In this document: piece after piece, positions 30,002-43,872 of the stretch | Layout of the letters: the number at the start of each line of letters is the position of its first letter | Numbering within the stretch: position 1 is the first letter of the stretch | Assembly: GCF_900142415.1 (NCBI RefSeq) | Contig: NZ_FRAU01000001.1 | Location: 675,246 to 739,245, forward strand | Length of the DNA stretch: 64,000 nucleotides | Direction of reading: 5' to 3' | Source: Rhodothermus profundi | GTDB lineage: Bacteria > Bacteroidota > Rhodothermia > Rhodothermales > Rhodothermaceae | Notes under the pieces: model-generated | What the model saw: the letters and a program-made list of their open reading frames with translations, nothing else | Databases searched by the model: none | Told to the model about the DNA's origin: nothing | Made by a program: the position numbers and the translations under genes

Positions 30002-31489
30002 TTATAACAAACCGGACGCGGCGACGCGCATGGCCTCGACCAGCGCCCGGGCCTTGTTAACGGTTTCCTCGTACTCCCGTTCGGGCTCACTATCGGCCAC
30101 GATGCCCGCCCCGGCCTGTATGTAGATGGTGCCGTTGCGGACCACCATGGTGCGGATGGCAATGCAGGTGTCCAGGTTGCCCGAAAAATCCATGTACCCG
30201 ACTGCCCCGGCATAGACGCCCCGGCGCGTGGGCTCCAGCTCGTCGATGATCTCCATGGCCCGCACCTTGGGCGCGCCGCTGACCGTGCCGGCTGGAAAGC
30301 AGGCAGCCAGCGCATCAAGCGCATCGTAGCCAGACGCAAGCTCCCCGGACACCAGCGAGACCAGGTGCATTACGTGGGAGTACCGCACGACAAAGGCGAA
30401 CCGATCCACCTGGACGGTGCCGAAGCGACAGACCCGGCCCAGATCGTTCCGGCCCAGATCGACCAGCATCAGATGCTCTGCCTGCTCCTTGGGATCGGCT
30501 TTCAGCTCGGCCTCCAGCGCCTGATCCTCCTCAGGCGTGCGGCCCCGCGGCCGCGTCCCGGCAATGGGCAACACTTCGGCCCGCCCGTGCTCAACGCGCA
30601 CCAGCACTTCCGGTGACGAGCCGATCAGCGCCAGATCCCCGAAGTCGATGTAGAACAGGTAAGGCGACGGATTGACCTGCCGGAGAGCCCGGTATAGATT
30701 GAAGCGGTCGCCCGTATAGGGCATGGCAAATCGCTGTGAGAGAACCACCTGAAAGATGTCCCCCTCATAGATGTACTCCTTGGCCCGGCAAACTGCCTCG
30801 CAGAAGGCGTTGCGTGAAAAGTTGGACGTAAGGGGCGCGGCAGGAAGCGCGACCGGCTCCGGCACTTCCAGCGACGCCTGCGCCAGCATGTCGCTCAGCA
30901 TATCCAGCCGGGCGACCGCCTCGTCATAGGCAGCGTGCAGCTCCGTGTCGGGCTCGACAAAAACCCCGGCCATGAGCACGAGCTGATGGCGCACGTGGTC
31001 GAACGCCACCACCGTATCGTAGAAATTCCAGCGGGCATCCGGCAGCTCCAGGTCATCGGGTGGAGGAGAAGGCAGGTGCTCCAGTTGCCGGACCATATCG
31101 TAGCCCAGATAGCCTACCGCCCCTCCTGTGAAACGCGGCAGCTCCGGCACGCTGACCGGATGGTAGCGCCGAAGCAACTGGCGCATTGTGGTAAAGAAGT
31201 CGGTCGCGCTCTTCTCCGACCGGTCGGGATGGTGCAGCACAACTCGCTCCCCGCGCACTTCTACCCTTAGGTAGGGCCGCGCTCCCAGAAAAGAATAGCG
31301 TCCCAGCTTTTCCCCTCCCTCCACACTTTCCAGCAAAAATGCATCCGGTGCCATGCTGCGGAGCCGGAGAAAGGCCGAAACCGGCGTCAGCAGATCCGCG
31401 CCCACGCGCCGAAAGACGGGCACGAACAGATGCGCGTGGCCGTCTGCTCGATGCGTCTCAATTAATCGGTGGAAGGTCTCGAACGTCAT
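30002..31489 (-). CDS. trpE: Anthranilate synthase component I
   Basis: Makes anthranilate from chorismate using ammonia from TrpG. The ATG at 31489 gives 495 residues starting MTFETFHRLIETHRADGH; the frame runs open to 31600 through the attenuator, which is not coding here. The feedback-inhibition motif LLES is present (DAFLLESVEGGEKLGRYSFL). Catalytic-domain motifs are GTRPRGRTPEED, LMLVDLGRNDLGRV, GTVSGAPKVRAMEIIDELEP and YIQAGAGIVADSEPEREYEE. An AGGGAG ribosome-binding site sits directly before the ATG, ten bases after the terminator U-tract. It is the first structural gene after the trpL leader. Confidence 0.97.
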   Translation of the reverse strand: MTFETFHRLIETHRADGHAHLFVPVFRRVGADLLTPVSAFLRLRSMAPDAFLLESVEGGEKLGRYSFLGARPYLRVEVRGERVVLHHPDRSEKSATDFFTTMRQLLRRYHPVSVPELPRFTGGAVGYLGYDMVRQLEHLPSPPPDDLELPDARWNFYDTVVAFDHVRHQLVLMAGVFVEPDTELHAAYDEAVARLDMLSDMLAQASLEVPEPVALPAAPLTSNFSRNAFCEAVCRAKEYIYEGDIFQVVLSQRFAMPYTGDRFNLYRALRQVNPSPYLFYIDFGDLALIGSSPEVLVRVEHGRAEVLPIAGTRPRGRTPEEDQALEAELKADPKEQAEHLMLVDLGRNDLGRVCRFGTVQVDRFAFVVRYSHVMHLVSLVSGELASGYDALDALAACFPAGTVSGAPKVRAMEIIDELEPTRRGVYAGAVGYMDFSGNLDTCIAIRTMVVRNGTIYIQAGAGIVADSEPEREYEETVNKARALVEAMRVAASGLL

Positions 31490-31498
31490 CTCCCTAAC

Positions 31499-31529
31499 AA
31501 AAAAGCCCACCGCGAAGCTTGCGGTGGGC
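31499..31529 (-). terminator. trp attenuator: intrinsic terminator
   Basis: On the minus strand GCCCACCGC, a seven-base loop AAGCTTC and GCGGTGGGC form a perfect 9-bp stem, followed by six T residues (plus-strand A-run 31499-31504). It ends ten bases before the trpE ATG. Its 5' arm overlaps a CGGCCCACC block (31523-31531) that can instead pair with GGTGGGCCG inside the leader gene (31571-31579), giving a competing 9-bp antiterminator. Confidence 0.9.
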
Positions 31530-31557
31530 CGTCTTGTTTCCCGTACAGGATGCATCA

Positions 31558-31641
31558 TCAGGCACGTGCGCGGCCCACCACGGCGGGGGTAAACCACCAC
31601 CAGCCATAATAGTGGGCGCTATGATACGCAACGTGCCGCAT
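31558..31641 (-). CDS. trpL: trp operon leader peptide with WWW
   Basis: A 27-codon reading frame beginning ATG at 31641 and ending TGA at 31558-31560. The peptide starts MRHVAYHSAH, continues YYGWWWFTPA and ends VVGRARA. Codons 14-16 are three consecutive TGG (31594-31602). AAGG lies nine bases upstream of the ATG as a weak ribosome-binding site. Segment 1 (GCCCAC, 31612-31617, codons 9-10) can pair with GTGGGC of segment 2. Segment 2 (GGTGGGCCG) can instead pair with segment 3, the terminator's 5' arm. A ribosome stalled at the Trp codons would mask segment 1 and favour antitermination, the classical trp mechanism. All pairings are seen in the sequence; the function is inferred. Confidence 0.9.
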   Translation of the reverse strand: MRHVAYHSAHYYGWWWFTPAVVGRARA

Positions 31642-32018
31642 CGTGGCCTTAAAGATACGACGCGATCGCGTTCCTGCACAACCCGTTCCTTGAAAAATCG
31701 GCAAACCGTGCGTGTGACTTAAAGGGGTGTGTTCAAGAAAAGTCCCTGCGTTCCTGTCTGCGACGCGTGCCGGTTCGTAGCAAGCCACGGCGCAAAGCGA
31801 AGTGGCGTACCCGGAAACAACACGGCGCCGGCGCTTCGCAGGCAGCCCTGTCGAACCTGCGGGATCTTCTTGCCGACCACACCACGATCCTGCATGCACG
31901 CTGGCCGATAGTCGGAGAGAAAGAACGTGCCGCCTTGCTTTCCGGCCGCCCATCTGGCAGGCAGTTGCCCGGAGCGTCCCGGCCTTTCGACAGCCTCCAG
32001 CGTGCCCTCATGCCTTTC
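31642..32018. other. Intergenic region upstream of the trp leader
   Basis: About 375 bases with no recognised gene. Several overlapping open frames exist on both strands, but none resembles a known protein or has a convincing ribosome-binding site. It must contain the trp promoter on the minus strand. A TATCTTTA block at 31651-31658 resembles the Bacteroidota TAnnTTTG element but lies too close to the trpL ATG to be convincing. Confidence 0.5.
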
Positions 32019-32187
32019 GCCGCAGCACCCTTCAACCGATGCGCCATTTCTCCCATAACATCCTGAATGTTCAGCCATTCCTCCCCCATCGTCCCTCTTG
32101 ACAATGTGTGTGTGTTAACTAGGGGTGCGCGGCCGGTCGTCTGGCCCGCACCCCCGGCGGCCGGCCTAGGGCCCATCGGGTGCGAAC
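32019..32187 (+). repeat. Long leader repeat, copy A (upstream of Cys-peptide 1)
   Basis: A 169-base block almost identical to 33639-33807 (about 12 mismatches by eye, exact offset 1,620). It contains TTGACAATGTGTGTGTGTT (32098-32116), a potential -35 region, then a hairpin: GGGTGCG-c-GGCCGG, loop TCGT, CTGGCC-CGCACCC (32123-32153), and ends with GGGCCCATCGGGTGCGAAC. The G-T wobble here against the A-T pair in copy B keeps the stem. It lies 24 bases before the peptide ATG. Confidence 0.85.
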
Positions 32188-32211
32188 CATTCAGATCAGA
32201 GAAAGCGTACG

Positions 32212-32451
32212 ATGAAACAGGGAATCTCTTTGCCCACAATGCTAACCATAGTCGTGTTGGGCTTACTGAGCAATCTTTTTGCTCCCAGAGTCAGTTTTTC
32301 AGAACCTTCTATTCTATGTGCCTGGGAAACAGAAGAATGTGCCAGCGTCGTCTTTCAGTACACGGATCGCTGGGTCTTAGAGATTCGTTGTGGTAACGAA
32401 ACGCATCTATACGAAGGATCCGGCATATGGCCAGGCTTCTGCCCCGAATAA
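32212..32451 (+). CDS. Small secreted four-cysteine protein 1
   Basis: A 79-residue protein with a signal peptide (MKQGISLPTMLTIVVLGLLS...) and a mature part of about 45 residues containing four cysteines in the order C-x6-C-x16-C-x16-C-P-E (CAWETEEC ... EIRC ... GFCPE). The same pattern occurs in the broken copy at 37928-38144, so it defines a small family; I do not recognise it from elsewhere. Two disulfides are plausible for an exported protein. It overlaps the following propeller gene by 25 bases, in another frame, so their translation may be coupled. Unlike the other two peptides it has no AAAGGAGG site, only a purine-rich AGAGAAAG. Confidence 0.7.
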   Translation: MKQGISLPTMLTIVVLGLLSNLFAPRVSFSEPSILCAWETEECASVVFQYTDRWVLEIRCGNETHLYEGSGIWPGFCPE

Positions 32452-33518
32452 CCGGCAGTCTGCTGGGTTGCCTCTTGCTGGTCTTCGAGCTCAGGGGACA
32501 GGCGCCTATTGCCTTGTCCCCTGAGCTCATTCTGAGCGGTGAACAATTCGGCAAAGCCGTTGCCCTTGCAGTCGATCGACGTGGTCGCGTTCTGGTAGCG
32601 GACGCGCGGGCTTACCAGATCGTATTGTTCGACTCAGCTGGAGCGGCACTCGACACGCTGGGCCGACGGGGCGAGGGTCCCGGGGAATTCCAGTTTCCAC
32701 CGCGTCATCTCACTTACCAGCCCGACACAGACGTGCTCTATGCCCTGGAGCTTTTCAGCGGCCGCGTGCACGCCTGGCGCCTGTCTCCTGCAACCAAATG
32801 GATTGGGACGCGCTCGCTGGTCGCCTCGCTCAGCGACGCCCAACGGGTCGAGGCCGTATGGGCCTGGGGAGCCGACACGCTCGTGCTGCGGGTCGTCGAA
32901 CGTCGCCGGGGTCGCAACGTCCATAATCTCGAAGCTCTTCGATGGTACCACTGGACCCAACGCACACAAGTGGCCCTTTTCGCGCTGCGTCCTGCCGAAG
33001 CCATTCGCACAGAAGTATCCTATACTATACTCCCTTTCCTGGCGCGCACGCTGGTAGACGTGCGCCCGGGTCAGGGCATTGCCTGGCTCTGGAGCGACAG
33101 CCTCATCGTGCACATTTACGATCCCAGAAGCCAACGCTGGGCACACCTTCCCTTTCGGATTACGCGACGCCTCCCGTTTACACAGACGCAATGGCAGCAG
33201 GCCGTGGACCGGATGCGACGGCTGGCTCCCCCGAGGTACAAATCCCTTGTCTATCCTCGTCCCCAGCGCAATTACTGGCCCTACACCGATGATTTGCTGC
33301 TGGACGACCAGCGACGCGTGTGGCTCCGGCTGCAACAGGGACCAGAAGTCACAGACCAGACCGTGTATCTGGTGGTTTCCGAAAAAGACCAACGCCAGAT
33401 TGTTCTGGAAGGCTCCGTTAATCTGGAAGTTGTGCAACAGGGACAGGCCTGGGGCATCAGGAATGCCCCCGATGGCCTCAAAGAAGTGGTTCGTTATCGA
33501 TTGCCTTTTGACCGGTGA
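32427..33518 (+). CDS. 6-bladed beta-propeller protein 1
   Basis: A 363-residue secreted protein (MARLLPRITGSLLGCLLLVF signal, cleavage near LRGQ). It has the repeat pattern of Bacteroidota 6-bladed beta-propeller (NHL/TolB-like) proteins: VLVADARAYQIVLFDSAGA, LGRRGEGPGEFQFPPRHLTY and later blades. The GPGEF motif is shared with four other genes in the cluster. The closest paralogue is the interrupted gene at 38086: both have the sequence WPYxDDLLLDD near the end. No enzymatic residues are recognised; the usual role of such propellers is ligand or protein binding. Start chosen because the ATG overlaps the end of peptide 1 and gives a good signal peptide. Confidence 0.85.
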   Translation: MARLLPRITGSLLGCLLLVFELRGQAPIALSPELILSGEQFGKAVALAVDRRGRVLVADARAYQIVLFDSAGAALDTLGRRGEGPGEFQFPPRHLTYQPDTDVLYALELFSGRVHAWRLSPATKWIGTRSLVASLSDAQRVEAVWAWGADTLVLRVVERRRGRNVHNLEALRWYHWTQRTQVALFALRPAEAIRTEVSYTILPFLARTLVDVRPGQGIAWLWSDSLIVHIYDPRSQRWAHLPFRITRRLPFTQTQWQQAVDRMRRLAPPRYKSLVYPRPQRNYWPYTDDLLLDDQRRVWLRLQQGPEVTDQTVYLVVSEKDQRQIVLEGSVNLEVVQQGQAWGIRNAPDGLKEVVRYRLPFDR

Positions 33519-33638
33519 TCATATGACGAATACGGGAATCCCATCGCTCAGATCACATCTATGAGGATGCACCCTAAGACTGTTCCGGACACCCTCTTGC
33601 CGTCCGGCTTCATTCAGAACTCCTGTCGAATCCCCTCA

Positions 33639-33807
33639 GCCGCAGCACCCTTCAACCGATGCGCCTTTCTTCCCATAACGTCCTGAATGTTCAGCCATTC
33701 CTCCCCCATCGTCCCTCTTGACAATGTGTGTGTGTTATTTCCGGGTGCGAGGCCAGTCGTCTGGCCCGCACCCCCGGCGGCCGGCCCGGGGCCCATCGGG
33801 TGCGAAC
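33639..33807 (+). repeat. Long leader repeat, copy B (upstream of small peptide 2)
   Basis: Second copy of the 169-base block of 32019-32187. The hairpin is GGGTGCG-a-GGCCAG, loop TCGT, CTGGCC-CGCACCC (33743-33773), with fully Watson-Crick stems apart from one bulged A. After the shared end GGGTGCGAAC the sequence runs into AAAGGAGGTGCACT and the ATG at 33832. A minus-strand frame across both copies reads MGEEWLNIQDVMG, but it is short and probably fortuitous. Confidence 0.85.
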
Positions 33808-33831
33808 TACAAATCTTAAAGGAGGTGCACT

Positions 33832-34080
33832 ATGAAACGCTTGCTGCTTCCCTTCGCCCTTATCCTCTCGCTGCTGGGCAGCCTGTTGTTGCTTGATACC
33901 GCAACGCGCACGGAAGTAGTGACCAACGCGGCTGCCCTGATCACACCTACGGAAGCCTGTGCAGGAGGCTGCGAAGAAGCCGACTGCCCTGGTAGTGGTG
34001 CGCCATGTTGCGAAGAGTCGTGGTTATTTGGACTTATCAAAAAGGTAAAAACGTACGAGGCACCTACTCCTCCTAATTGA
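33832..34080 (+). CDS. Small secreted cysteine-rich peptide 2 (NVEALA-like)
   Basis: An 82-residue precursor with a strong AAAGGAGGTG ribosome-binding site. The signal segment MKRLLLPFALILSLLGSLLL is followed by TRTEVVTNAAALITPTEA and a Cys/Gly/Glu-rich core, CAGGCEEADCPGSGAPCC, then a basic-hydrophobic tail (FGLIKKVKTYEAP). The TNAAALI stretch recalls the NVEALA peptides that sit beside 6-bladed propeller genes in Bacteroidales; this link is inference. Five cysteines are present (C-x3-C-x5-C-x6-CC). A terminator hairpin follows. The function is unknown; a secreted, possibly processed peptide is the likeliest reading. Confidence 0.7.
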   Translation: MKRLLLPFALILSLLGSLLLLDTATRTEVVTNAAALITPTEACAGGCEEADCPGSGAPCCEESWLFGLIKKVKTYEAPTPPN

Positions 34081-34108
34081 ACAACCATTTCCAAATCAGC
34101 ATTGCTCG

Positions 34109-34143
34109 AGAGGATGGATCATTACTCAAATGATCCATCCTCT
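34109..34143 (+). terminator. Hairpin terminator after small peptide 2
   Basis: A perfect 15-bp stem, AGAGGATGGATCATT (34109-34123) paired with 34129-34143 across an ACTCA loop, followed by TATTATC. It lies 28 bases past the peptide stop. Termination here, or partial readthrough, would make the peptide transcript far more abundant than the downstream propeller gene. Confidence 0.7.
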
Positions 34144-34169
34144 TATTATCTAACACCAATAACAAACAA

Positions 34170-35261
34170 ATGGATATCATGACAAAAAAACATATATTGA
34201 AGATTGCAATTGTTCTACTAACTCTATCCGGTTTTGGCGTGGCGTTCAGCATCTTGTCTCTTCCAGGGAAATTACCTGAGATCAAACTTTCCGATCAAAT
34301 GCCTCCTCCCCAGCCCCAAGCACTTACTGATCGTCGAATAGCCAATGTTCTACTAAAGCGTGTTCAAGTATTAGGCAATACACCAGAAACTTTCCTAAAC
34401 TATGTTGATTTTATCAAAATAGGCCCTCGAAAAACTGTTTATGTCTTTGACAGGGGAGTTAACCAAGTTATTCAGTTTGACCTGAATACAGGACAAATAG
34501 TACAACGTTATGGCAAAGGACTAGGAAAAGGACCTGGAGAATTTAATGTAGTTACTGATTTTGAAGTAGACAATGACGGATATGTTTATGTTTGCGATTC
34601 AGAAAATAGTCGCATTACAATATTTTCCCCAAATGGATCATTGTTATCTACCTTATCACTCTCCAGTCCTCCATTAGGAATTGCTCTGTTAAAAGACAAA
34701 TACATTGCAGTGCAACTAATAGATCCAAAGAACGATGCCTTATTTGAGATATATCAACTTGAAAAGAATCGCGATAAGTATAAACTAAAACTTATAAAAC
34801 GATTTGGCAAATTTTTTGAAAAGCAAGCAGCTTTAGGACTACTATTGAATGGTTTAATTACAGGTTCTGACACTTTCTTTGTGTATGCACCACGGCGAAT
34901 TGGCTGGCTTACAGCATTCAGACTCGACGGAACGTTGCTGTATCACAGAACTACTATTGATCCTATTCCTGTTCCTAAGCTCATTCGCCAGGGAGCAGTA
35001 ACAAGGGTAGATCGGAATGCTCCTCGAGCAACCTTCGAAGTAGTTATTGATGGAAATAAAGTTTATCTTTATGCAGGTAAAGTAAAAATGGAATCAAACA
35101 GCATATATATGATTGATCTATATGATGCATATACTGGAGATTATTTATTTTCTATTCCTTTGCCGGAACGATTTGGTTTATTAGCCATTCGCGACTCTTT
35201 AATTTATGCAACACAGGACACTGTGGTTACGGTATGGCACTGGCAATTAAAGGAGGATTAA
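34170..35261 (+). CDS. 6-bladed beta-propeller protein 2 (AT-rich)
   Basis: A 363-residue secreted or membrane-tethered protein; N-terminal hydrophobic segment ILKIAIVLLTLSGFGVAFSI. Blade motifs include VYVFDRGVNQVIQFDLNTG, YGKGLGKGPGEFNVVTDFEV, VYVCDSENSRITIFSPNG and a late RRIGWLTAFRLDG. The alternative ATG at 34179 would shorten it by three residues. The gene is visibly AT-rich (codons such as AAA, ATA, TTA are common), in contrast with the GC-rich propeller genes on both sides, suggesting separate acquisition. It follows the peptide 2 terminator. No catalytic residues are recognised. Confidence 0.85.
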   Translation: MDIMTKKHILKIAIVLLTLSGFGVAFSILSLPGKLPEIKLSDQMPPPQPQALTDRRIANVLLKRVQVLGNTPETFLNYVDFIKIGPRKTVYVFDRGVNQVIQFDLNTGQIVQRYGKGLGKGPGEFNVVTDFEVDNDGYVYVCDSENSRITIFSPNGSLLSTLSLSSPPLGIALLKDKYIAVQLIDPKNDALFEIYQLEKNRDKYKLKLIKRFGKFFEKQAALGLLLNGLITGSDTFFVYAPRRIGWLTAFRLDGTLLYHRTTIDPIPVPKLIRQGAVTRVDRNAPRATFEVVIDGNKVYLYAGKVKMESNSIYMIDLYDAYTGDYLFSIPLPERFGLLAIRDSLIYATQDTVVTVWHWQLKED

Positions 35262-35374
35262 GTATTATATAGTCGGTTGCGTAGCGCCTCTTTATAAAAT
35301 AGGCCGGATAATCATGAATCCAAACCTGGCGTTCCTCTGAAAACACTAAACGCCTCAAGTGCCGGACAATCGCT

Positions 35375-36370
35375 ATGCAGGCTTTTGCAGGCAGCTACCT
35401 GCACGCAGCGATCGGGTTGTTGGCTGGAGTTGCATACCTGCTGCCAGTCGACCGCATCTATCGCTCCGTGCAGTGGGAGCTACTCTGGGAAGTGGGCGAA
35501 CCCGTCCTGCTCAACCCGGTGCAGGTAGAGATAGGTCCAGGCGGACGCGTGTACGTGATGGACTACGGCACGTTTCGGCTGCACGTCTTCACCCCGGACG
35601 GGCAGCTTCATCGCACCATAGGCCAGGGCGAAGGACAGGGCCCCGGCGAATTCAGCCATCCCATCGACTTTGTCATCGATGCCCGGGGCCGCATCTGGGT
35701 CCTGGACGCCACCACGGCACGGGTGACCATCTTCTCGACAAGCGGCTCCTTGGATACGCTCTGGACGTTGCCCTTTCCCGCCAGTCGGCTGGCCCTTTCG
35801 CCCGACAGCCGGCACTACGCACTCTTTCCGATCTCCCCGCGCCGTGAAGGGGCTTTCGCGCTGTTCCGAGACGGCCAACTGCTCGGCTTTTTCGGACAAC
35901 TGGCAGCCGATCAGGTGCAACGCTGGATTGCTTTCGACGGCCGACTGATGGGCGATCGAGAAGGTTTCTACTACACAGCCATTCGCGCTGGATGGGTCGC
36001 CTCGTTCGACTGGAACGGCCGCGTGCGCTTTTCGTGGACCAGCATCGAACCGGTGCCTTTTCCGCAACCCGAGCGCACGCCCGAAGGGGGCCTGCGCCTC
36101 ACGCGGCGCCATCGTTTCGTATCGTACGACATAGCACCGGGGCCGCATCCGGAGACGTTTGCCGTGATGGGGTTGCTACCGGTCGATGGACGTTACCGTG
36201 CCGTCATCGACGTGTATCACCGCCAGGATGGGCGCTACTGCTACAGCCTCCAGCTACCCCGAGGCGGCTCCGGCTTCACGTTTCACGGAAATCGGCTCTA
36301 TCTGGTCAATCGTATCGCCTTGCTGGCCTACCGCCTGGAAGGAAACACGGCCTGCCCTCCAGCAAAATAG
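35375..36370 (+). CDS. 6-bladed beta-propeller protein 3
   Basis: A 331-residue protein with an N-terminal hydrophobic segment (HAAIGLLAGVAYLLPVD) that may act as signal or anchor. Blades show VYVMDYGTFRLHVFTPDG, IGQGEGQGPGEFSHPIDFVI, RIWVLDATTARVTIFSTSG and AIRAGWVASFDWNGRVRFSW. The last motif aligns with the corresponding part of propeller 2 (RRIGWLTAFRLDG), and GPGEF is in the same place, so the two are paralogues despite very different base composition. Function unknown; probably periplasmic. The GC content is like the genome average. Confidence 0.85.
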   Translation: MQAFAGSYLHAAIGLLAGVAYLLPVDRIYRSVQWELLWEVGEPVLLNPVQVEIGPGGRVYVMDYGTFRLHVFTPDGQLHRTIGQGEGQGPGEFSHPIDFVIDARGRIWVLDATTARVTIFSTSGSLDTLWTLPFPASRLALSPDSRHYALFPISPRREGAFALFRDGQLLGFFGQLAADQVQRWIAFDGRLMGDREGFYYTAIRAGWVASFDWNGRVRFSWTSIEPVPFPQPERTPEGGLRLTRRHRFVSYDIAPGPHPETFAVMGLLPVDGRYRAVIDVYHRQDGRYCYSLQLPRGGSGFTFHGNRLYLVNRIALLAYRLEGNTACPPAK

Positions 36371-36511
36371 TAGCGACAAAAAGTCGTTAGTTGCTGCCAA
36401 ACCTGGAGTTTGACACGAGATAAGAATATCTTAGTCACAGGAAAATCCAGAGTTATAGCCCAGATACATGAGGCGATTGCACACCCTATCCACAACCTGA
36501 ATAAGTTTACT

Positions 36512-37630
36512 ATGTTGCCCAGAACCATTTCTATGGCGATACTCTTTGTTGCTTTGCCACCATCCTATTGCCTGGCGCAGACCTGGACCGCCTCGTTCTC
36601 CACGGAATGGAGGCTGGGATTAGAAGAAGTAGAACCTCAATTCTTTCGCTGGCCCCTCCAACTCATCACAGATCAAAAGGGCTACGTATACGTGCACAGT
36701 TATGGAGACGCATACCTTCGCGTCTTTGATGCAAACGGACGCTTCGTCAAATACATCGGGCGCAAAGGACAGGGACCTGGGGAATTCGAGGTAATCGATC
36801 AGTTTTTTGTTGATTCCAAAAACAAACTTTATATTAACGATCCTATCAATGATCGTATTACAATTTATGATCATAGTAGGGAAAGTTTTGTAACAATATC
36901 TTACCCTTTATATATCTATAAAGCATACTCTATTCAAAAGGACTCTATGCTACTCATTGCGCGGTTAAAATTAAATAAAAACAAAAGATTAAATAAAAAC
37001 AAAAGAGATTGCATACTTTTCATTACTGACAACAAGTTTAACCTCGATCACAAGTCTTGTGTAGCCCGCGCCTCGCTGTTCTGGTCACCGGAAGATCCAC
37101 TCTATGCCATGCTGGTGCGTCGAGGCGCCATTCGGGTGGCCTATCGTCAGGGCGTCCTCATGGCCGCGCCCTGGCTCTATGAAGGCGTACTCTTCCGCCT
37201 GGAACGCCACCGTGACCAGTGGCAGGCAACGCGGCTTACCGGCCTCCACCCCGGCAAATCGGCCTACACCAAACTGCCAGACGGCACGGCCCCCTGGGAC
37301 CTGTCGCCTTCAGAAAGAAAACACATGTTCTTTGCCAGTGGTCCGTATGGGCGCCTTGCCCTGCGCATTCATCGTCGCAGCCTGGGCGTCTTTGCGCTGG
37401 CCAATGGCGGGTGGGGGCATTTCAGTATAGACCAGCAGCATGATCCGCCGATTGGTTTTCTGGAGATCTGGGATGGGCGGGGCCAGTATCTGGGTTATGC
37501 CGAGCTTCAGTCGCCTCCGTACGACATCCTGTGGAAAGAACCGGACAGGGACACGTTTTATCTGTTGCGGTGGCAGGAGGATTTGCCGGTTATCGAAAAG
37601 GCCCGGCTACAGCTGCAGCGCAGACAGTAA
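36512..37630 (+). CDS. 6-bladed beta-propeller protein 4 (composition mosaic)
   Basis: A 372-residue protein. The open frame begins at 36410, but the ATG at 36512 gives a clean signal peptide (MLPRTISMAILFVALPPSYC, cleavage near LAQ). Blade motifs are VYVHSYGDAYLRVFDANG, IGRKGQGPGEFEVIDQFFVD and LYINDPINDRITIYDHS. The middle is AT-rich up to about 37060, then turns sharply GC-rich, and the second half has fewer obvious blade motifs (SERKHMFFASGPYGRLALRI). An 18-base tandem duplication in the AT-rich part repeats the residues LNKNKR. The gene may be a recombinant of two paralogues. No catalytic motif is seen. Confidence 0.8.
   Translation: MLPRTISMAILFVALPPSYCLAQTWTASFSTEWRLGLEEVEPQFFRWPLQLITDQKGYVYVHSYGDAYLRVFDANGRFVKYIGRKGQGPGEFEVIDQFFVDSKNKLYINDPINDRITIYDHSRESFVTISYPLYIYKAYSIQKDSMLLIARLKLNKNKRLNKNKRDCILFITDNKFNLDHKSCVARASLFWSPEDPLYAMLVRRGAIRVAYRQGVLMAAPWLYEGVLFRLERHRDQWQATRLTGLHPGKSAYTKLPDGTAPWDLSPSERKHMFFASGPYGRLALRIHRRSLGVFALANGGWGHFSIDQQHDPPIGFLEIWDGRGQYLGYAELQSPPYDILWKEPDRDTFYLLRWQEDLPVIEKARLQLQRRQ
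36970..37005 (+). repeat. 18-bp perfect tandem duplication in propeller 4
   Basis: ATTAAATAAAAACAAAAG occurs twice head to tail (36970-36987 and 36988-37005). It keeps the reading frame and duplicates a lysine/asparagine-rich six-residue segment. Replication slippage in AT-rich sequence is the simplest origin. Confidence 0.9.
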
Positions 37631-37875
37631 CGTGGCGCCAGGGCGCTGCTGATCGGGGAAGGTTTCGGACTGGACAATTCGGCACAGCCGCAGGTGCGCT
37701 TGCAGTTCGGCCGGCGGTGTCTTGTCCGGATCGGATTACTGCGCTTATTGCGCCGTGGTTGACGACAGGCGGAACCTGACGCCATTGCGCTTTGCTTTAG
37801 GGCCGACTACAGGCGGGTGTGCATCGCCGCTCTAGGCCTCCTTCCAGACCCACGTGCAGGCCTGTCTCACCCATA

Positions 37876-37936
37876 GCCGGCCCGAGGCCCATCGGGTGCG
37901 AACTGCCAATCTCAAAGGAGGTGCACTATGAAACGC
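37876..37936 (+). repeat. Shortened third copy of the leader element
   Basis: GCCGGCCCGAGGCCCATCGG followed by GTGCGAACTGCCAATCTCAA and AAGGAGGTGCACTATGAAAC matches the 3' end of copy B, including the ribosome-binding site and first codons. The upstream hairpin and TTGACA part are missing. The preceding 245 bases (37631-37875) hold no recognised gene. A still shorter trace, GCCCCATCGAGTGCGAAC, is at 39256-39273 before the ABC permease. Confidence 0.8.
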
Positions 37937-38144
37937 TCGCTGCTTATTTTAGGCCTATTGATAGGATTCAGTATCTCCTCTTTTACTTTTCTGCCTCCTG
38001 AAGAAGTATGCCAGTGGAAGACAGATACCTGTCTGGTAATTATCCTTCAATAATGAAGGGTACGGGGAAATGATAATCCGTTGCGATGATGGCTACCGAG
38101 ATGAAATTATTCAGGAAGGCACCTGGACATTCTGCCCGGAATAG
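37928..38144 (+). pseudogene. Frameshifted small four-cysteine peptide 3
   Basis: A strong AAAGGAGGTG site precedes an ATG and signal peptide (MKRSLLILGLLIGFSISSFT). The frame continues CQWKTDTCLVIILQ and stops at TAA (38051-38053). Shifting by one base there restores NEGYGEMIIRC ... TWTFCPE ending at TAG 38142-38144. The restored protein has the same C-x6-C-x16-C-x16-C-P-E pattern as peptide 1. One extra T near 38051 explains the break. The signal peptide resembles peptide 2, so the gene may be a hybrid of the two types. Probably inactive, unless frameshifting occurs. Confidence 0.75.
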
Positions 38145-39171
38145 CTCTAAAGCAGGCCTCCGTCTGTGCCTTTGCCCCCTTCTGTTTATTTTCTTCGGCG
38201 CGCGATCTGTCCAAGGACAATCTGCTCCGGTCTTGTCCCCAGACCTTGTGCTGCCGGGCCATCTTTTTGCCCGCGTGGTATCGGTAGCCATGGATCGCCA
38301 TCAGCACATCCTGGTGGCCGATGCCGGCGTCTACCACGTGCTCCTGTTTAGCGCGCAGGGCGCGCCGATCGACACGCTGGGCCAACGGGACAACGGCCCC
38401 GGCGAATTTCAGACCCTTACGCGCATCGCCTGTCCACCTGAAGGTGACTGGCTATTCGTACTGGAAGAACTGTCCCGCCGCGTGCATCGCTGGCACCTGG
38501 ATCCCGCTCCCCGCCACGTGGACACTCGGATTCTCCCCTCCCCACGCGCGCCAGCCCGCTGGCCGCTGGAACTCTGGCCCGTAAGCGCCGACACGCTGAT
38601 CCTCCGTTTTGCAGCCAGCCTGATCGACGCCGGTGCGCATGGACTTTACCGCTATCAGTGGTCAAATCGGCAACTTCACCGGCTACTTCCGCTGCGTGAA
38701 AATGAGGTCATCCGTCGGGGAACGCGTCGCACGGTCTTTCCCTTTCTGGCGCGCCAGCTTGTGGCCGTTCGGCCTCCCCACGGCATTGCCCTGGTCTGGA
38801 GCGATAGCCTCCAGGTGGTGCTGTATGACCTGAAGGGCAACCGGCAGGCACGCCGTCGTTTTAGTGCGCCCCCGCCTCGTGCTCTGACCTCTGAAGACTG
38901 GGCCAGAGCACGCCAGATGGATACCCGTTTTGCCTTCTCTGCATCCCTGCCGCGCCTTGGACGAACGCACTGGCCTTACGTCGACGATCTGCTGCTCGAC
39001 GATGCGGGCAACATATGGATGCGGCTTCTCTAGGGATGGCCGGACGAGCAGCCTCGAAGCACCCAGTACCTGGTCTTCACCTCTCGGGGTGACGTGCACC
39101 TGGTTTATCTGAAGAGTGCCATTGACCTTGAGGTTTGCAGAATGGTCGGGCGCTGGGCTTGCGGCAGGAAG
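38086..39171 (+). pseudogene. 6-bladed beta-propeller 5, interrupted by a nonsense codon
   Basis: A close paralogue of propeller 1: ALSPELILSG there aligns with VLSPDLVLPG here, LGRRGEGPGEF with LGQRDNGPGEF, and WPYTDDLLLDD with WPYVDDLLLDD. The frame from 38086 ends at TAG 39031-39033, just where propeller 1 has WLRLQQGPEV. Downstream the same frame continues as GWPDEQPRSTQYLVFTSRGD and DLEVCRMVGRWACGRK, still aligning with propeller 1 to about 39171. A CAG-to-TAG change is the likely cause. The true start is uncertain because the ATG that overlaps the peptide end in copy 1 is not conserved here. About 85% of the protein could still be made. Confidence 0.75.
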
Positions 39172-39325
39172 CGGACGGGACCCGGTCGGTGGTTGTTTTC
39201 TCGCGGATTCGCCTGCACCAGCACGACGCCACGCAAGAATAACCGTCTGGTCCAGGCCCCATCGAGTGCGAACCAGACTAAATGCAACGTGTCATGCAGG
39301 GGCTAAGTATAGGTACCTGGCTCGG

Positions 39326-40804
39326 ATGCGCCCAATGAGACCGCAGAGGTCCCGACTGCGTTTGCTGGTAGGGCTCTGGCACCGCTGTGCTTCCCGACAG
39401 CGGGCCCTGGTGCAGCATCCCGTAGAACGGTGGTTGCTCCGCATTGTCCTGGGCTTAAGCATCGCGGGCGCCTTTGTCTGGGGTCTTCTGGCGGCCTGGA
39501 TGCTCCCCTTACGGTCTCTCTCGCTGCATACGCTCCATAGTGCGCTCTTAGGGCTGCTGCTCCTCTGGCCACTTTTGCTTTCACTCTGGCAGTCGGGCCC
39601 CCAATTGCCGGTGCACGCATGGCTGGTATGGCCGGTTACGCGCAACTGGCTGGCCCATGGGCTCCAGATGCTCAGCTTACTTCACGCAGGAAATGCCTGG
39701 CTTCTGCTTTTTCTGCTGGGTATCTGGGCGAAAGGCATTGCCCCTTCGTTTTCTCTGGCGTCAAACCTGGGATGGCTGGCAACGGCCGGCTTGCTGCTTA
39801 CCCTTGCGCAATGGATAACGAATGGGCTGCGCATCCTTCGCTATAGCTACCCCACGAGTTATGTATTGATATGGCTGGGCGGCATCGTGGGCATCGGACT
39901 TTTGAGCACGCAGGACGGACTCTCCTGGCTGGCCGGGCAAACGCTTGATCGCGCGTTAAATCAACCGGCCTCGGTCCTCTGGATACTGCTTGTTGTGAAT
40001 ATATGCTGCTACCTTTTGTCCTTACTGCCCATCCGAAAATCTCTGTTTGTGGACCACCCTTTTATGTTTCCCCTATCGTCTGCTTTATCTACGCGTCCAC
40101 GCTGGACCGCGTCAGGCATCTGGCGCCTGGTGCGGCTACAACTGCTTTTAATCTGGCGACATCGCTTTACAAGAATGATGCTATTTCTACCTCTGCTGTT
40201 TGGGTTGATGGGTTCCATTCAGTTCGGAGTAGGTTTGCAGCAAAATGCCTGGATTTATACCGCAACAGGTACAGGGTTTCTGTTAGGGTCTTCCCTGCAT
40301 TTCCTGATCCATATGCTCAGTTGGCAGAGCACATACGCAGCGGCTCTGTTTACCTGGCCGATATCCTATCAGGATCTGGGACGGGCAACGTTGTGGGTTG
40401 CGCTGGGACCGGCTTCAACTGGCTTTCTCACAGGTGCGGGCATTGTATTTTTAATTGACCCGTCGGTGCTTATCCATCTGCTTGTTCTCTATGGCTATCT
40501 GGTAGGCTGGGTGCATCCTATTTTGCTCTGGCAAATGCCGTTACATGGCGTGCGCGTCCAGCTCCATCCCCAATCTGTTAGTCCATCAGGTCCTCCTCAT
40601 CGACGTCCCTTTCGTCTCATCGGTCTTGTGCTGCTGCTTATCGGGCTGGCGGTGGGAGGCATAACGGCCGGAAAGTGGGGCTTGCTGATGCTGGCCCTGT
40701 TAGGTGGGGTGGGTCTATTAATGCTTCCGCTCTGGCTTGATCTGTTTGAAGTACAGATGCATCGTCAAAAGCATTCCCTCCTGGTCCACCTGCAAGCAGT
40801 ATAG
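39326..40804 (+). CDS. ABC transporter permease, DUF5687-like
   Basis: A 492-residue polytopic membrane protein with about 11-12 hydrophobic segments, starting MRPMRPQRSRLRLLVGLWHR; the ATG at 39335 is an alternative. The frame is open to 39116, but that extension is non-hydrophobic and overlaps the broken propeller. The layout (hydrophobic halves separated by a segment RTRWTASGIWRLVRLQLLLI, then the motif LFTWPISYQDLGRATLWVAL) resembles DUF5687 permeases of Bacteroidota, which pair with an ATPase encoded next door. Here the ATPase that follows after four bases is broken. Export of the cluster's peptides is a possible but unproven role. Confidence 0.65.
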   Translation: MRPMRPQRSRLRLLVGLWHRCASRQRALVQHPVERWLLRIVLGLSIAGAFVWGLLAAWMLPLRSLSLHTLHSALLGLLLLWPLLLSLWQSGPQLPVHAWLVWPVTRNWLAHGLQMLSLLHAGNAWLLLFLLGIWAKGIAPSFSLASNLGWLATAGLLLTLAQWITNGLRILRYSYPTSYVLIWLGGIVGIGLLSTQDGLSWLAGQTLDRALNQPASVLWILLVVNICCYLLSLLPIRKSLFVDHPFMFPLSSALSTRPRWTASGIWRLVRLQLLLIWRHRFTRMMLFLPLLFGLMGSIQFGVGLQQNAWIYTATGTGFLLGSSLHFLIHMLSWQSTYAAALFTWPISYQDLGRATLWVALGPASTGFLTGAGIVFLIDPSVLIHLLVLYGYLVGWVHPILLWQMPLHGVRVQLHPQSVSPSGPPHRRPFRLIGLVLLLIGLAVGGITAGKWGLLMLALLGGVGLLMLPLWLDLFEVQMHRQKHSLLVHLQAV

Positions 40805-41415: not shown

Positions 41416-43872
41416 ATGATAGGCGTTTTAGGTCACCTGGCCGTGCTGTCGGCCTTCGTGGCGTGCGTGTTAGCAGGACTTGCGTACTGGCAGGCCGCCC
41501 GGCAGCGCGATGCGTTTGATTGGATCCGCCTGGCACGGGGAAGCTGGCATGTGATGTTTGGCGCCACGGTGGTGGCCTCCGGAGCGTTGCTTTATTTGAT
41601 CCTCACGCACCAGTTTCAGTACGCGTATGTTTATCAGTACTCGTCGCGCGACCTTCCCCTGCATTACTTGATCTCCTCATTCTGGGCCGGCCAGGAAGGT
41701 TCCTTCCTGCTGTGGATTCTTTACACCGGTCTTCTTGGATTTGGCATGATGCGCTGGTCGGGCCGTTTTGAAGCCCCAGCAATGGCTGTGATCGCCCTGA
41801 GCCAGGCCTTTCTGCTGTCAATGGTGATCGGAGTGAAGCTTGGTCCTCTGACTATTGGCTCGTCTCCGTTTCAGTTGCTGGTTGAGCGCTTTCCTGACGC
41901 TCCTATTTTCCGCCAGAATCCGGGCTTTGTACCGGCCGACGGCAATGGTCTCAACGATCTGTTGTTAAACCCCTGGATGACGGCTCATCCGCCTACGTTA
42001 TTCGTAGGGTTTGCCGCCATGGCAGCGCCTTTTGCCCTGGCTATTGCCGCGCTCTGGCAGCGTCGCTATCGAGAATGGATCCGGGTAGCCATGCCCTGGA
42101 TGCTGTTTGCGGTGCTGGCCCTGGGAGCGGGTATTCTGCTGGGCGGCTACTGGGCCTACGAAACGCTTTCTTTTGGGGGATACTGGGCCTGGGATCCCGT
42201 AGAAAATTCCTCGCTGGTCCCCTGGATTACCGGAGTAGCTGCCTTGCACGCCATGCTGATCCAGCGGCGTAGTGGGCGAGCTTACCGCATGGCGCTTGTG
42301 CTGACCCTAGTCAGTTATGTGCTGGTCATCTATTCGACGTTCCTGACGCGCAGCGGCATTCTGGGCGATCTGTCGGTCCATTCGTTCGTTGATCTGGGGC
42401 TGCATAATCAACTGCTCGTCTGGATTGCGTCCATGATCTTACTGGGCGGCATCCTCCTTGTCGCGCGGTACCGTGAGCTGCCAGCCCCTGCCGATGAGCC
42501 ACCCGCCCTTTCGCGCGAGGCCTGGATTTTCATCGGGGCGTTGCTCCTGACCATCACGGCCCTGGTCATTCTGGTCGGCACCAGTGCCCCTATTTTAGGT
42601 AAGCTTTTCCGCGACAATCCGGCCAGTGTGGCCACTTCGTTTTACAACCAGTGGACGCTCCCCCTAGCAGTCGTCTTCACTTTCTTAATGGGTGCCGCGC
42701 AGCTCATCTGGTGGCACAAGATGGAAGTGGACATGGCGCACCGGTTGCTCTGGCGACCGCTGGCCCTTTCGGTGGGGGCGACGTTAGCGGTGCTGTTAGG
42801 GACGCCCTTCGTCGAGCATACCGTACGGCCGCTCATGCCCTCTGCAGATAGCCCCATGGCTCAGGCTGACCTGCTGGGCGGCCTCACGCAACTCTGGCAG
42901 GCCTACGGCTACAGCCTGCTGCTGCTTTTGCTCGTTTTTGCTTCGTTTTTTGCCTTTTTTGGCAATTTGCAGGTGCTCTGGCGCATTGGACGGGGCAATC
43001 CACGTCTGGCTGGCGGAGCCCTCTCTCATGTCGGCCTGGCTATCATGCTGCTGGGCGTTGTCGCTTCGAGTGGTTTTAGCCTCCCTCTGCCCCATCGGGG
43101 CGTACCGCCGGCTTTCCGCGACGAGGAGCGCACCAACTTTGTGCTGGTGCGCGATGAACCTCGACGTGTAGGTGGGTACGAGGTGCGTTACGAAGGCCGC
43201 GGCCTCACGCCCGAGGGCCATACCTTCTACCGCCTATCGTTCACGGCTCCCGACGGCCGCACCTTCACGCTGAAGCCGGTTGCTTATCAGAACCGCCGCG
43301 AAGAATGGATCCTGCATCCCGACATCAAGCTATCGCTCTGGAAAGACCTGTTTGTAGCCGTTTCCCCTGCGGAAATGTTCGAGCAGGATTCCACCTTCTC
43401 TGAAAAAGGCGGTGAGCTGGTGCTGGCCCGAGGCGATTCGGTGGTGCTGGGTCGCCAGGAATTCGCGTTGCGTTTCGTGGGCTTCGACACGCAGGTTGAT
43501 CCGTCACTGCTGCCCGACAGCACCACTATTGCTGTAGCAGCTGTCTTGCACGTGACGAACTTGCAGACGCAGGAAACACGCATCCTGCGGCCTGTCTACT
43601 TAGTACGGGCCGATCGCTCCGTGCAATACATCCAGACGCGCGTGCGCGACTGGAATCTGGCGATCACGTTCACCAGCATGAACGTCAGTTCTGGAGAGAT
43701 CACCCTGGCCATTGAAGGCGTGGACGTGATGCCTGACGACTGGATCGTCGTGCAGGCCTACGAAAAGCCGCTGATCAACCTGGTATGGCTGGGCTTTTTA
43801 CTCATGAGCGGCGGGATTGGGCTCGCGCTCATGCGTCGCGCCCGTGAACTGCGCCCTGTGCTGCGCCGCTAA
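41416..43872 (+). CDS. ccmF: Cytochrome c heme lyase subunit CcmF
   Basis: Part of the System I heme lyase, which attaches heme to apocytochrome c at the outer face of the inner membrane. The 818-residue protein has about 15 membrane segments. Signature parts are SFWAGQEGSFLLWILYTGLL, the WWD-type heme-handling motif GGYWAWDPVENSSLVPWITG, and a long periplasmic C-terminal domain (about 565-790) before the last helix. Histidines suited for heme ligation flank the motif, as in the family. Length is slightly above the E. coli protein. Other ccm genes are not in the window. The 3' end overlaps a convergent unknown gene by 75 bases. Confidence 0.95.
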   Translation: MIGVLGHLAVLSAFVACVLAGLAYWQAARQRDAFDWIRLARGSWHVMFGATVVASGALLYLILTHQFQYAYVYQYSSRDLPLHYLISSFWAGQEGSFLLWILYTGLLGFGMMRWSGRFEAPAMAVIALSQAFLLSMVIGVKLGPLTIGSSPFQLLVERFPDAPIFRQNPGFVPADGNGLNDLLLNPWMTAHPPTLFVGFAAMAAPFALAIAALWQRRYREWIRVAMPWMLFAVLALGAGILLGGYWAYETLSFGGYWAWDPVENSSLVPWITGVAALHAMLIQRRSGRAYRMALVLTLVSYVLVIYSTFLTRSGILGDLSVHSFVDLGLHNQLLVWIASMILLGGILLVARYRELPAPADEPPALSREAWIFIGALLLTITALVILVGTSAPILGKLFRDNPASVATSFYNQWTLPLAVVFTFLMGAAQLIWWHKMEVDMAHRLLWRPLALSVGATLAVLLGTPFVEHTVRPLMPSADSPMAQADLLGGLTQLWQAYGYSLLLLLLVFASFFAFFGNLQVLWRIGRGNPRLAGGALSHVGLAIMLLGVVASSGFSLPLPHRGVPPAFRDEERTNFVLVRDEPRRVGGYEVRYEGRGLTPEGHTFYRLSFTAPDGRTFTLKPVAYQNRREEWILHPDIKLSLWKDLFVAVSPAEMFEQDSTFSEKGGELVLARGDSVVLGRQEFALRFVGFDTQVDPSLLPDSTTIAVAAVLHVTNLQTQETRILRPVYLVRADRSVQYIQTRVRDWNLAITFTSMNVSSGEITLAIEGVDVMPDDWIVVQAYEKPLINLVWLGFLLMSGGIGLALMRRARELRPVLRR

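What the first reader, a model, noticed from the sequence alone, without database searches (positions are those of the whole stretch)
32019..39171. Cluster of five GPGEF beta-propellers with small secreted Cys peptides
Five tandem paralogous 6-bladed propeller genes alternate with three small exported Cys-containing peptides, followed by an ABC permease. Two of the peptides share C-x6-C-x16-C-x16-C-P-E. Peptide-propeller pairs recall NVEALA/propeller pairs of Bacteroidales, whose role is not known. It could be a peptide signalling, binding or defence system in which each propeller recognises its partner peptide.
Basis: partly seen in the sequence, partly recalled or inferred. Interest (0 to 1): 0.75.

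Follow-up and report, generated by a model that had tools for sequence, protein, structure and literature searches.

The report
Switchable secreted-peptide and propeller gene pairs
This heat-loving bacterium (Rhodothermus) carries a cluster of small secreted cysteine-rich peptides, each followed by the gene for a matching propeller-shaped partner protein; the promoters contain a length-variable TG repeat that could switch the pairs on and off, and the same peptide-propeller layout recurs across related bacteria, which suggests a widespread peptide-weapon-and-protector (or ligand-and-receptor) system.

Summary
The cluster is real and the pairing is not chance. Pairs 1 and 2 are intact (peptide 32212-32451 with propeller 32427-33518; peptide 33832-34080 with propeller 34170-35261). 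Pair 5 is decayed (frameshifted peptide, truncated propeller), propellers 3 and 4 have no peptide, and the DUF5687 permease is followed by a broken ATPase.

In Rhodothermus genomes, 30 of 58 propellers have a secreted peptide with at least three Cys directly upstream, against 0 of 257 control genes; outside the genus 27 of 128 against 1 of 57. Elsewhere in the class the peptides carry double-glycine-type leaders beside C39 exporters, HlyD and VKOR. In one distant Bacteroidota genome all six NVEALA peptides precede a propeller. The window's peptides are not NVEALA members.

New: peptides 1 and 2 are driven by a repeated cassette with a (TG)n tract between TTGACA and a TA-box. All 16 (TG)7+ tracts in seven genomes lie there; spacers vary in 2-nt steps. 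A second TG module drives redoxin-like protein, Cys peptide and propeller; two copies in one genome are 92-100% identical up to the signal peptide and unrelated after it.

Best reading: phase-variable, payload-swapping bacteriocin-like peptides with cognate propeller binder/immunity proteins. Architecture shown; function inferred.

The parts
32010..32211 (+). Promoter/leader cassette copy 1, upstream of peptide 1
   Evidence: 209-nt direct repeat 32010-32218 / 33630-33838, 86% identical; related copies in G003, G014, G099, G146
32098..32121 (+). TG-tract promoter: TTGACA, 12-nt spacer containing (TG)5, TAACTA
   Evidence: spacer 12 here, 8-28 in other copies, 17 in four orthologous non-tract promoters of the genus
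32131..32184 (+). Candidate leader RNA pseudoknot (32131-32141 with 32156-32166; loop 32147-32153 with 32178-32184)
   Evidence: 97.7% of cells paired, 3 pairs with compensatory changes; suggestive only, a rival hairpin also pairs 94.8%
32212..32451 (+). Peptide 1, 79 aa, signal peptide plus C-x6-C-x16-C-x16-CPE core
   Evidence: core dN 0.046 / dS 0.647 vs G014 orthologue; overlaps propeller 1 by 25 nt, as does the G014 pair
32427..33518 (+). Propeller 1, 363 aa, exported
   Evidence: AlphaFold pLDDT 90.1, pTM 0.89; closest solved folds Brat/TRIM NHL domains
33630..33831 (+). Promoter/leader cassette copy 2 with TG-tract promoter 33718-33741
33832..34080 (+). Peptide 2, 82 aa, signal peptide plus CAGGCEEADCPGSGAPCC core
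   Evidence: homologues before propeller-2-type genes in G014, G099, G146
34170..35261 (+). Propeller 2, 363 aa, DUF5128; G+C 37.5% against 58.6% for the window
35375..36370 (+). Propeller 3, 331 aa, DUF5128; no peptide in front here
   Evidence: the G003 orthologue (79%) follows a TG cassette and a 67-aa Cys peptide
36515..37630 (+). Propeller 4, 371 aa, DUF5128; no intact peptide in front
   Evidence: 60.5 bits; paralogue 76% identical at G000:C9 behind a cassette and a decayed peptide-propeller fusion
37876..37927 (+). Cassette copy 3, 3' end only (no TG promoter left)
37928..38147 (+). Peptide 3, frameshifted (ORF ends at 38053; CPE-ending remainder in another frame)
   Evidence: intact orthologue at G014:C15
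38086..39033 (+). Propeller 5, truncated (315 aa; orthologue 383 aa)
   Evidence: in-frame TAG in the match; G014:C15 orthologue
39244..39275 (+). Cassette copy 4, short remnant before the permease; no peptide left
   Evidence: 81% identical over 32 nt
39329..40804 (+). DUF5687 ABC-type permease
   Evidence: 48% identical to the permease of the intact TG-promoter / hydrophobic-peptide / DUF5687 / ATPase operon at G000:C10
40808..41400 (+). Broken ABC ATPase
   Evidence: tblastn with the intact G000:C10 ATPase aligns only residues 11-126 of 237

Best explanation
The cluster is a partly decayed array of effector-partner modules. Each module has four steps. (1) A promoter whose -35/-10 spacer holds a (TG)n tract, so that gain or loss of TG units can switch the operon on or off. 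(2) A structured leader. (3) A secreted, probably disulfide-bonded Cys-rich peptide. (4) A co-transcribed exported propeller that binds that peptide. The peptide most likely acts on neighbouring cells as a bacteriocin-like toxin, and the propeller protects the producer by sequestering it outside the inner membrane, much as the lantibiotic immunity lipoprotein NisI does. Payloads (core plus propeller) are swapped behind constant promoter/signal modules. Shown: module anatomy, pairing, tract placement and length variation between copies, payload swap. Inferred: on/off switching, co-transcription, disulfides, binding, toxicity, immunity.
For: Pairing: Cys peptide (3 or more Cys, signal or GG leader) directly upstream of 30/58 propellers vs 0/257 controls in the genus (p 4e-26), and 27/128 vs 1/57 outside (p 2e-4); with a ribosome-binding site required, 20/58 vs 0/257 and 15/128 vs 0/57. 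All six NVEALA peptides of G326 precede a propeller. Peptide-propeller similarity Mantel r 0.95, 0 of 5000 permutations. Bacteriocin-type context: in G062, G092 and G013 the peptides carry double-glycine-type leaders (LNRNEMKHILAGS, LSREEMRNVKGG) beside propellers; G092 and G013 also have a C39-peptidase ABC exporter, HlyD and a VKOR-thioredoxin protein (Pfam-checked for G092). One leader weakly matches 'bacteriocin-like protein' and TIGR04149 models, below cut-off. The cassette also drives a hydrophobic GxG-rich peptide with a DUF5687 permease and, in G000:C10, an ATPase. Switch: all 16 (TG)7+ tracts in seven genomes directly follow TTGAC. Spacers are even (8-28) in cassette 1 and odd (13-27) in module 2, against 17 in four orthologous non-tract promoters. 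Payload swap: two G003 copies are 92-100% identical from promoter to signal peptide, then 35-67%. Constraint: peptide-1 core dN/dS about 0.07.
Against: No functional data. About half of the genus's propellers have no detectable peptide, and most DUF5128 propellers elsewhere in the class do not. No killing domain or target is recognised, and peptide cores match no toxin family. Linked duplication alone would give the peptide-propeller correlation. Bacteroidetocins, the nearest tested peptides of the phylum, have no known immunity protein and inhibit their own producers (PMC6671954). TG lengths come from single, partly fragmented assemblies; within-strain variation was not tested.
Confidence: 0.45

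Rival explanations
1. Peptide signalling: the peptide is a secreted pheromone and the propeller is its periplasmic or surface receptor, part of a sensing or kin-recognition system.
For: Same pairing data. Each peptide family keeps its own propeller family. Propellers are common ligand-binding scaffolds.
Against: No kinase, regulator or transmembrane signalling gene recurs beside the pairs. Tract-bearing promoters, payload swapping and a promoter shared with peptide-ABC operons fit antagonism better.
Confidence: 0.2
2. Maturation or detoxification: the propeller is an enzyme or chaperone that processes, folds or inactivates the peptide, like the NHL-type peptide amidating lyase PAL or virginiamycin B lyase.
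For: Profile and fold matches to PAL (3fvz, E 5e-13) and virginiamycin B lyase (2z2o). Adjacent redoxin-like and VKOR genes show that peptide maturation matters.
Against: PAL and virginiamycin B lyase rank below RNA-binding NHL domains, so this is general fold similarity. Invariant columns of the propeller alignments belong to the GxGPGEF blade motif, with no obvious catalytic set. A private propeller per peptide is unusual for a maturation enzyme.
Confidence: 0.17
3. Envelope or adhesion function: the pairs make variable surface complexes, and the TG tract gives antigenic-type or phage-receptor variation.
For: Phase-variable promoters in other bacteria often drive surface structures, for example the (TA)n of hifA/hifB (PMC2651432).
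Against: Peptides are short, with no surface anchor recognised. C39/VKOR export contexts point to released peptides.
Confidence: 0.1
4. The TG tract is not a switch: tracts are decaying hot spots or spacers without regulatory effect (this rival concerns only the switch and is independent of the others).
For: Most spacers are far from 17 nt. The window's own genome has only short tracts ((TG)3-5), and several of its pairs are decayed. No strain-level data.
Against: Every (TG)7+ tract in seven genomes lies at this one position, before two or three unrelated promoters with the same kind of cargo. Flanking boxes are conserved while tract length varies, in 2-nt steps.
Confidence: 0.25

Closest known systems
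NVEALA peptide (PF14055) and propeller pairs of Bacteroidota
   Same: Small leader, short Cys core, directly before a six-bladed-propeller lipoprotein; 6 of 6 in G326
   Different: No NVEALA motif or PF14055 match in the window or in Rhodothermus; hhalign of peptide-2 family vs NVEALA 1.9%. TG promoter, leader and redoxin-like module were not seen with NVEALA here.
Bacteroidetocins / double-glycine bacteriocins of Bacteroidota (Coyne 2019, PMC6671954)
   Same: Small disulfide-type peptides; thiol oxidoreductase in the cluster; relatives of our pairs have GG leaders, C39 exporter and VKOR
   Different: Bacteroidetocin loci have no reported propeller and no known immunity protein; the window peptides have Sec signals and no C39 exporter beside them.
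Lantibiotic immunity lipoproteins (NisI/SpaI), from general knowledge
   Same: Working model only: exported protein encoded next to the peptide that would sequester it; dedicated ABC transporter as second immunity branch (compare the DUF5687/ATPase operon)
   Different: Not homologous; propeller fold; one private partner per peptide; binding untested.
hifA/hifB (TA)n phase-variable promoter of Haemophilus (PMC2651432)
   Same: Dinucleotide repeat in the promoter region, proposed to alter -35/-10 spacing
   Different: Different repeat (TG), phylum and cargo; many dispersed copies before small-peptide operons; switching not demonstrated here.
Polymorphic toxin-immunity modules (PMC3482391; general knowledge)
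   Same: Constant export part, variable payload and adjacent specific partner gene
   Different: Payload is a 40-60-aa Cys peptide, not a toxin domain on a large carrier; partner is a propeller.

Membership tests
DUF5128 (PF17170) six-bladed propellers | Pfam gathering score reached | tested here: inconclusive
   Propellers 2-4 above cut-off (34.5, 39.7, 60.5 vs 22.9); 1 and 5 below (16.6, 16.0)
DUF5128 (PF17170) six-bladed propellers | NHL-type propeller fold | tested here: met
   Propellers 1 and 2: pLDDT 90.1 and 89.0; Foldseek to NHL propellers E 1e-11 and 6e-13
NVEALA (PF14055) | Profile match / NVEALA motif | tested here: not met
   No match for peptides 1 and 2, none in the six Rhodothermus genomes; hhalign 1.9%
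NVEALA (PF14055) | Direct neighbour of a propeller gene | tested here: met
   Window pairs 1 and 2; NVEALA pairs in G326. Architecture shared, sequence not.
Double-glycine bacteriocins / TIGR04149-type precursors | GG leader and C39-peptidase exporter | tested here: not met
   Window peptides have Sec-type signals and no C39 gene beside them; met in outline for relatives in G092 and G013
Bacteriocin with immunity protein | Growth inhibition of sensitive cells and protection by the partner | not testable with these tools
   Needs experiment
Phase-variable promoter by simple repeat | Repeat between promoter boxes whose length varies between copies | tested here: met
   32 promoters, spacers 8-28 even and 13-27 odd; 16/16 (TG)7+ tracts after TTGAC
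Phase-variable promoter by simple repeat | Reversible length change within a strain altering transcription | not tested
   One genome per species in the collection; no reads or expression data

The most novel reading that the evidence does not exclude
Across Bacteroidota, six-bladed propellers of the DUF5128/DUF4221/TolB_like group are cognate extracytoplasmic immunity (or receptor) proteins for a large, unrecognised set of short Cys-rich secreted peptides that use at least three kinds of leader (Sec, NVEALA, double-glycine/C39). In Rhodothermus the pairs form a dispersed, payload-swapping arsenal switched by TG-repeat promoters.
Probability: 0.35. Interest if true: 0.9.

Novelty: new variant of a known kind. 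Interest (0 to 1): 0.74.

Why it matters
DUF5128-type propellers are abundant in Bacteroidota and have no assigned role. Linking them to adjacent secreted Cys peptides gives a directly testable function (binding, immunity or reception) for both families at once. If the peptides are antibacterial, this opens a large catalogue of small disulfide-bonded antimicrobials with private resistance proteins. The TG-tract promoters would be a clear case of a phase-variable small-peptide regulon in a thermophile, testable from existing sequencing reads.

Tried and rejected
NVEALA membership of the window peptides: rejected. Known RNA family for the leader: no Rfam match up to E = 1. Sigma-70 consensus scan: no enrichment, and it misses the TG promoters because their spacers are off 16-18. 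ScyF and Lactonase family hits: far below cut-off, fold similarity only. A pairing rule for all propellers of the class: rejected; arrays such as those in G064 and G098 have lipoprotein propellers and no detectable peptides. A redoxin assignment of the 163-184-aa module-2 protein by Pfam: no hit; only a weak DsbE match (E 0.012). Leader hairpin versus pseudoknot: covariation mildly favours the pseudoknot, resting mostly on two divergent copies. Co-folding peptide and propeller was not possible with monomer jobs. Literature: no paper in the held library on NVEALA, and none found on DUF5128-type propellers with peptides.
Full report
What is there. The window lies on contig 1 of a 3.14-Mb genome (G000) of the genus Rhodothermus: the genus member G146 carries a 10,705-bp contig that matches in length and in its 63% propeller identity the named record WFPM01000152.1, 'Rhodothermus sp. 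isolate S012_61' (that the two are the same is inferred). Between trpE (minus strand, 30002-31600) and ccmF (41416-43872) lie five propeller ORFs, three small exported Cys peptides and a DUF5687 ABC permease (trpE and ccmF named by eye from the translations). Pairs 1 and 2 are intact. Peptide 3 is frameshifted and propeller 5 is truncated relative to an intact G014 pair. Propellers 3 and 4 have no peptide in front, but the G003 orthologue of propeller 3 follows a 67-aa Cys peptide. The ATPase behind the permease is a remnant. The cluster sits at the same trpE-ccmF position in G003 and, as far as contigs show, in G014. It is a mosaic: propeller 2 is 37.5% G+C and part of propeller 4 27.5%, in a 58.6% window.

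The peptides are real genes. Peptide 1 and its G014 orthologue differ by 13 synonymous and 5 non-synonymous changes in the core (dN 0.046, dS 0.647). The 25-nt overlap of peptide 1 with propeller 1 is kept in G014, which suggests translational coupling.

The pairing is not chance. I gathered loci around propellers and cassettes and asked how often a 45-140-aa ORF with a signal-like or double-glycine leader and at least three Cys lies directly upstream. In the genus: 30 of 58 propellers against 0 of 257 other genes of the same loci. Outside the genus: 27 of 128 against 1 of 57. Requiring a ribosome-binding site: 20/58 vs 0/257 and 15/128 vs 0/57. Loci were chosen for propellers or cassettes, so the rates describe these loci, not all genomes. 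Over 18 pairs, peptide-core similarity and propeller similarity correlate (Mantel r 0.95, 0 of 5000 permutations), as linked inheritance would also produce.

Three kinds of leader, one kind of partner. In other families of the class (G062, G092, G013) the peptides have double-glycine-type leaders and stand before DUF5128-type propeller lipoproteins; G092 and G013 also have a C39-peptidase ABC exporter, HlyD and a VKOR-thioredoxin protein (Pfam-checked in G092, by sequence likeness in G013). In a distant Bacteroidota genome, G326, all six NVEALA peptides precede a lipoprotein of the DUF5128, DUF4221 or TolB_like families. The Rhodothermus peptides have plain Sec-type signals and no NVEALA similarity. 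The leader changes while the Cys core and the propeller remain, so the partner of the propeller is most simply the mature peptide (inference).

The TG promoters. Upstream of peptides 1 and 2 lies a 209-nt repeat (86% identical). Relatives of it occur in four other Rhodothermus genomes before peptide-propeller pairs, before a hydrophobic GxG-rich peptide plus DUF5687 permease, and before two lipoprotein-like genes in G099. Its core is TTGACA, a (TG)n tract, then TAATTA. Four orthologous promoters of the genus with similar boxes and no tract have a spacer of exactly 17 nt, and a tRNA-gene promoter has 18. In 32 tract promoters the spacer is 8, 10, 12, 14, 18, 20, 22, 24, 26 or 28 nt in cassette 1 and 13, 15, 19, 21, 25 or 27 nt in module 2 (one chance match removed). 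All 16 (TG)7+ tracts in the seven genomes follow TTGAC within a few bases. This is the anatomy of a phase-variable promoter like the (TA)n of hifA/hifB (PMC2651432). Switching itself is not shown, and assembled tract lengths can be wrong.

A second module confirms the cargo. An unrelated TG promoter (TTGACA-(TG)n-TAACTT) drives a 163-184-aa signal-anchored protein (weak DsbE similarity, E 0.012), then a 64-74-aa Cys peptide with a nearly constant signal (MRRWKDRLATLFLVVAVGLSLLPW), then a propeller. Two copies in G003 are 92-100% identical from promoter through signal peptide, then fall to 35-67% for core and propeller. The break lies near the signal/core boundary, so core and propeller appear to be exchanged as one payload. 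A third promoter type (G099:C92) precedes Cys peptide, propeller and a redoxin-like gene.

The leader. The 5' leader can form an 11-bp stem whose loop pairs with a conserved GGGTGCG just upstream of the ribosome-binding site (H-type pseudoknot), in competition with a 5' hairpin. Pairing is 97.7% with three compensatory pairs, against one for the hairpin. This is suggestive only. There is no Rfam match.

Mechanism. Exported Cys peptide, private exported propeller, payload swapping, tract-bearing promoters and relatives with C39/VKOR export genes are best joined by an antagonism model: switchable bacteriocin-like peptides with propeller immunity proteins that bind them outside the cell membrane. 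I put this at 0.45. Signalling (0.2), peptide maturation or inactivation by the propeller (0.17) and surface variation (0.1) remain. No toxin, receptor or enzyme function is demonstrated for either partner. Bacteroidetocins, the best-studied small peptides of the phylum, need a thiol oxidoreductase, carry GG leaders and lack known immunity proteins (PMC6671954), so a propeller immunity protein would be new.

Novelty. The held library contains no paper on NVEALA and none was found on DUF5128-type propellers paired with peptides. The parts are known kinds (small secreted peptide, propeller, repeat-bearing promoter); the combination and its spread appear undescribed, within the limits of that library.

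Noticed in passing
L212 (G003:C1:77000-88000) and L213 (G003:C1:501000-513000); also L214, L215, L217-L223: Second TG-promoter module (redoxin-like protein, Cys peptide with constant signal, propeller) with payload change at the signal/core boundary; three near-identical copies of one version in G000 (C12, C4 end, C7 start).
   Followed up: yes
L106 9650-7018 (G000:C10), L072 3075-1145 (G014:C42), L075 5091 onwards (G099:C22): TG promoter before a 91-101-aa hydrophobic GxG-rich peptide (C.AASGIGA..LGT...TPVG.AAWL), followed in G000 and G014 by a DUF5687 permease and in G000 by an ABC ATPase: a bacteriocin-like operon with candidate ABC immunity.
   Followed up: partly
window 32110-32196 and 33730-33815; alignment A3: Conserved leader RNA with a possible H-type pseudoknot just upstream of the ribosome-binding site, shared by otherwise unrelated genes.
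   Followed up: partly
L164, L168, L174 (G062:C105, G092:C1, G013:C11): Double-glycine-leader Cys peptides before DUF5128 lipoproteins, with C39 exporter, HlyD and VKOR-type genes nearby.
   Followed up: yes
L234-L236 (G326:C2 and C4): All six NVEALA peptides directly precede propeller lipoproteins of three Pfam families (DUF5128, DUF4221, TolB_like).
   Followed up: yes
L074 (G099:C182) and L078 (G099:C207): The same TG cassette drives 186-aa and 288-aa lipoprotein-like genes with no assigned role.
   Followed up: no
L163, L165, L166 (G064:C3, G062:C105, G098:C1): Long arrays of DUF5128 lipoproteins beside RND-type efflux genes, mostly without detectable peptides.
   Followed up: no
window 32036-32080 and 33656-33700: Conserved near-palindrome (CTGAAnTTTCAG-like in G014) about 30 nt upstream of the -35 box in cassette 1; operator-like.
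   Followed up: no
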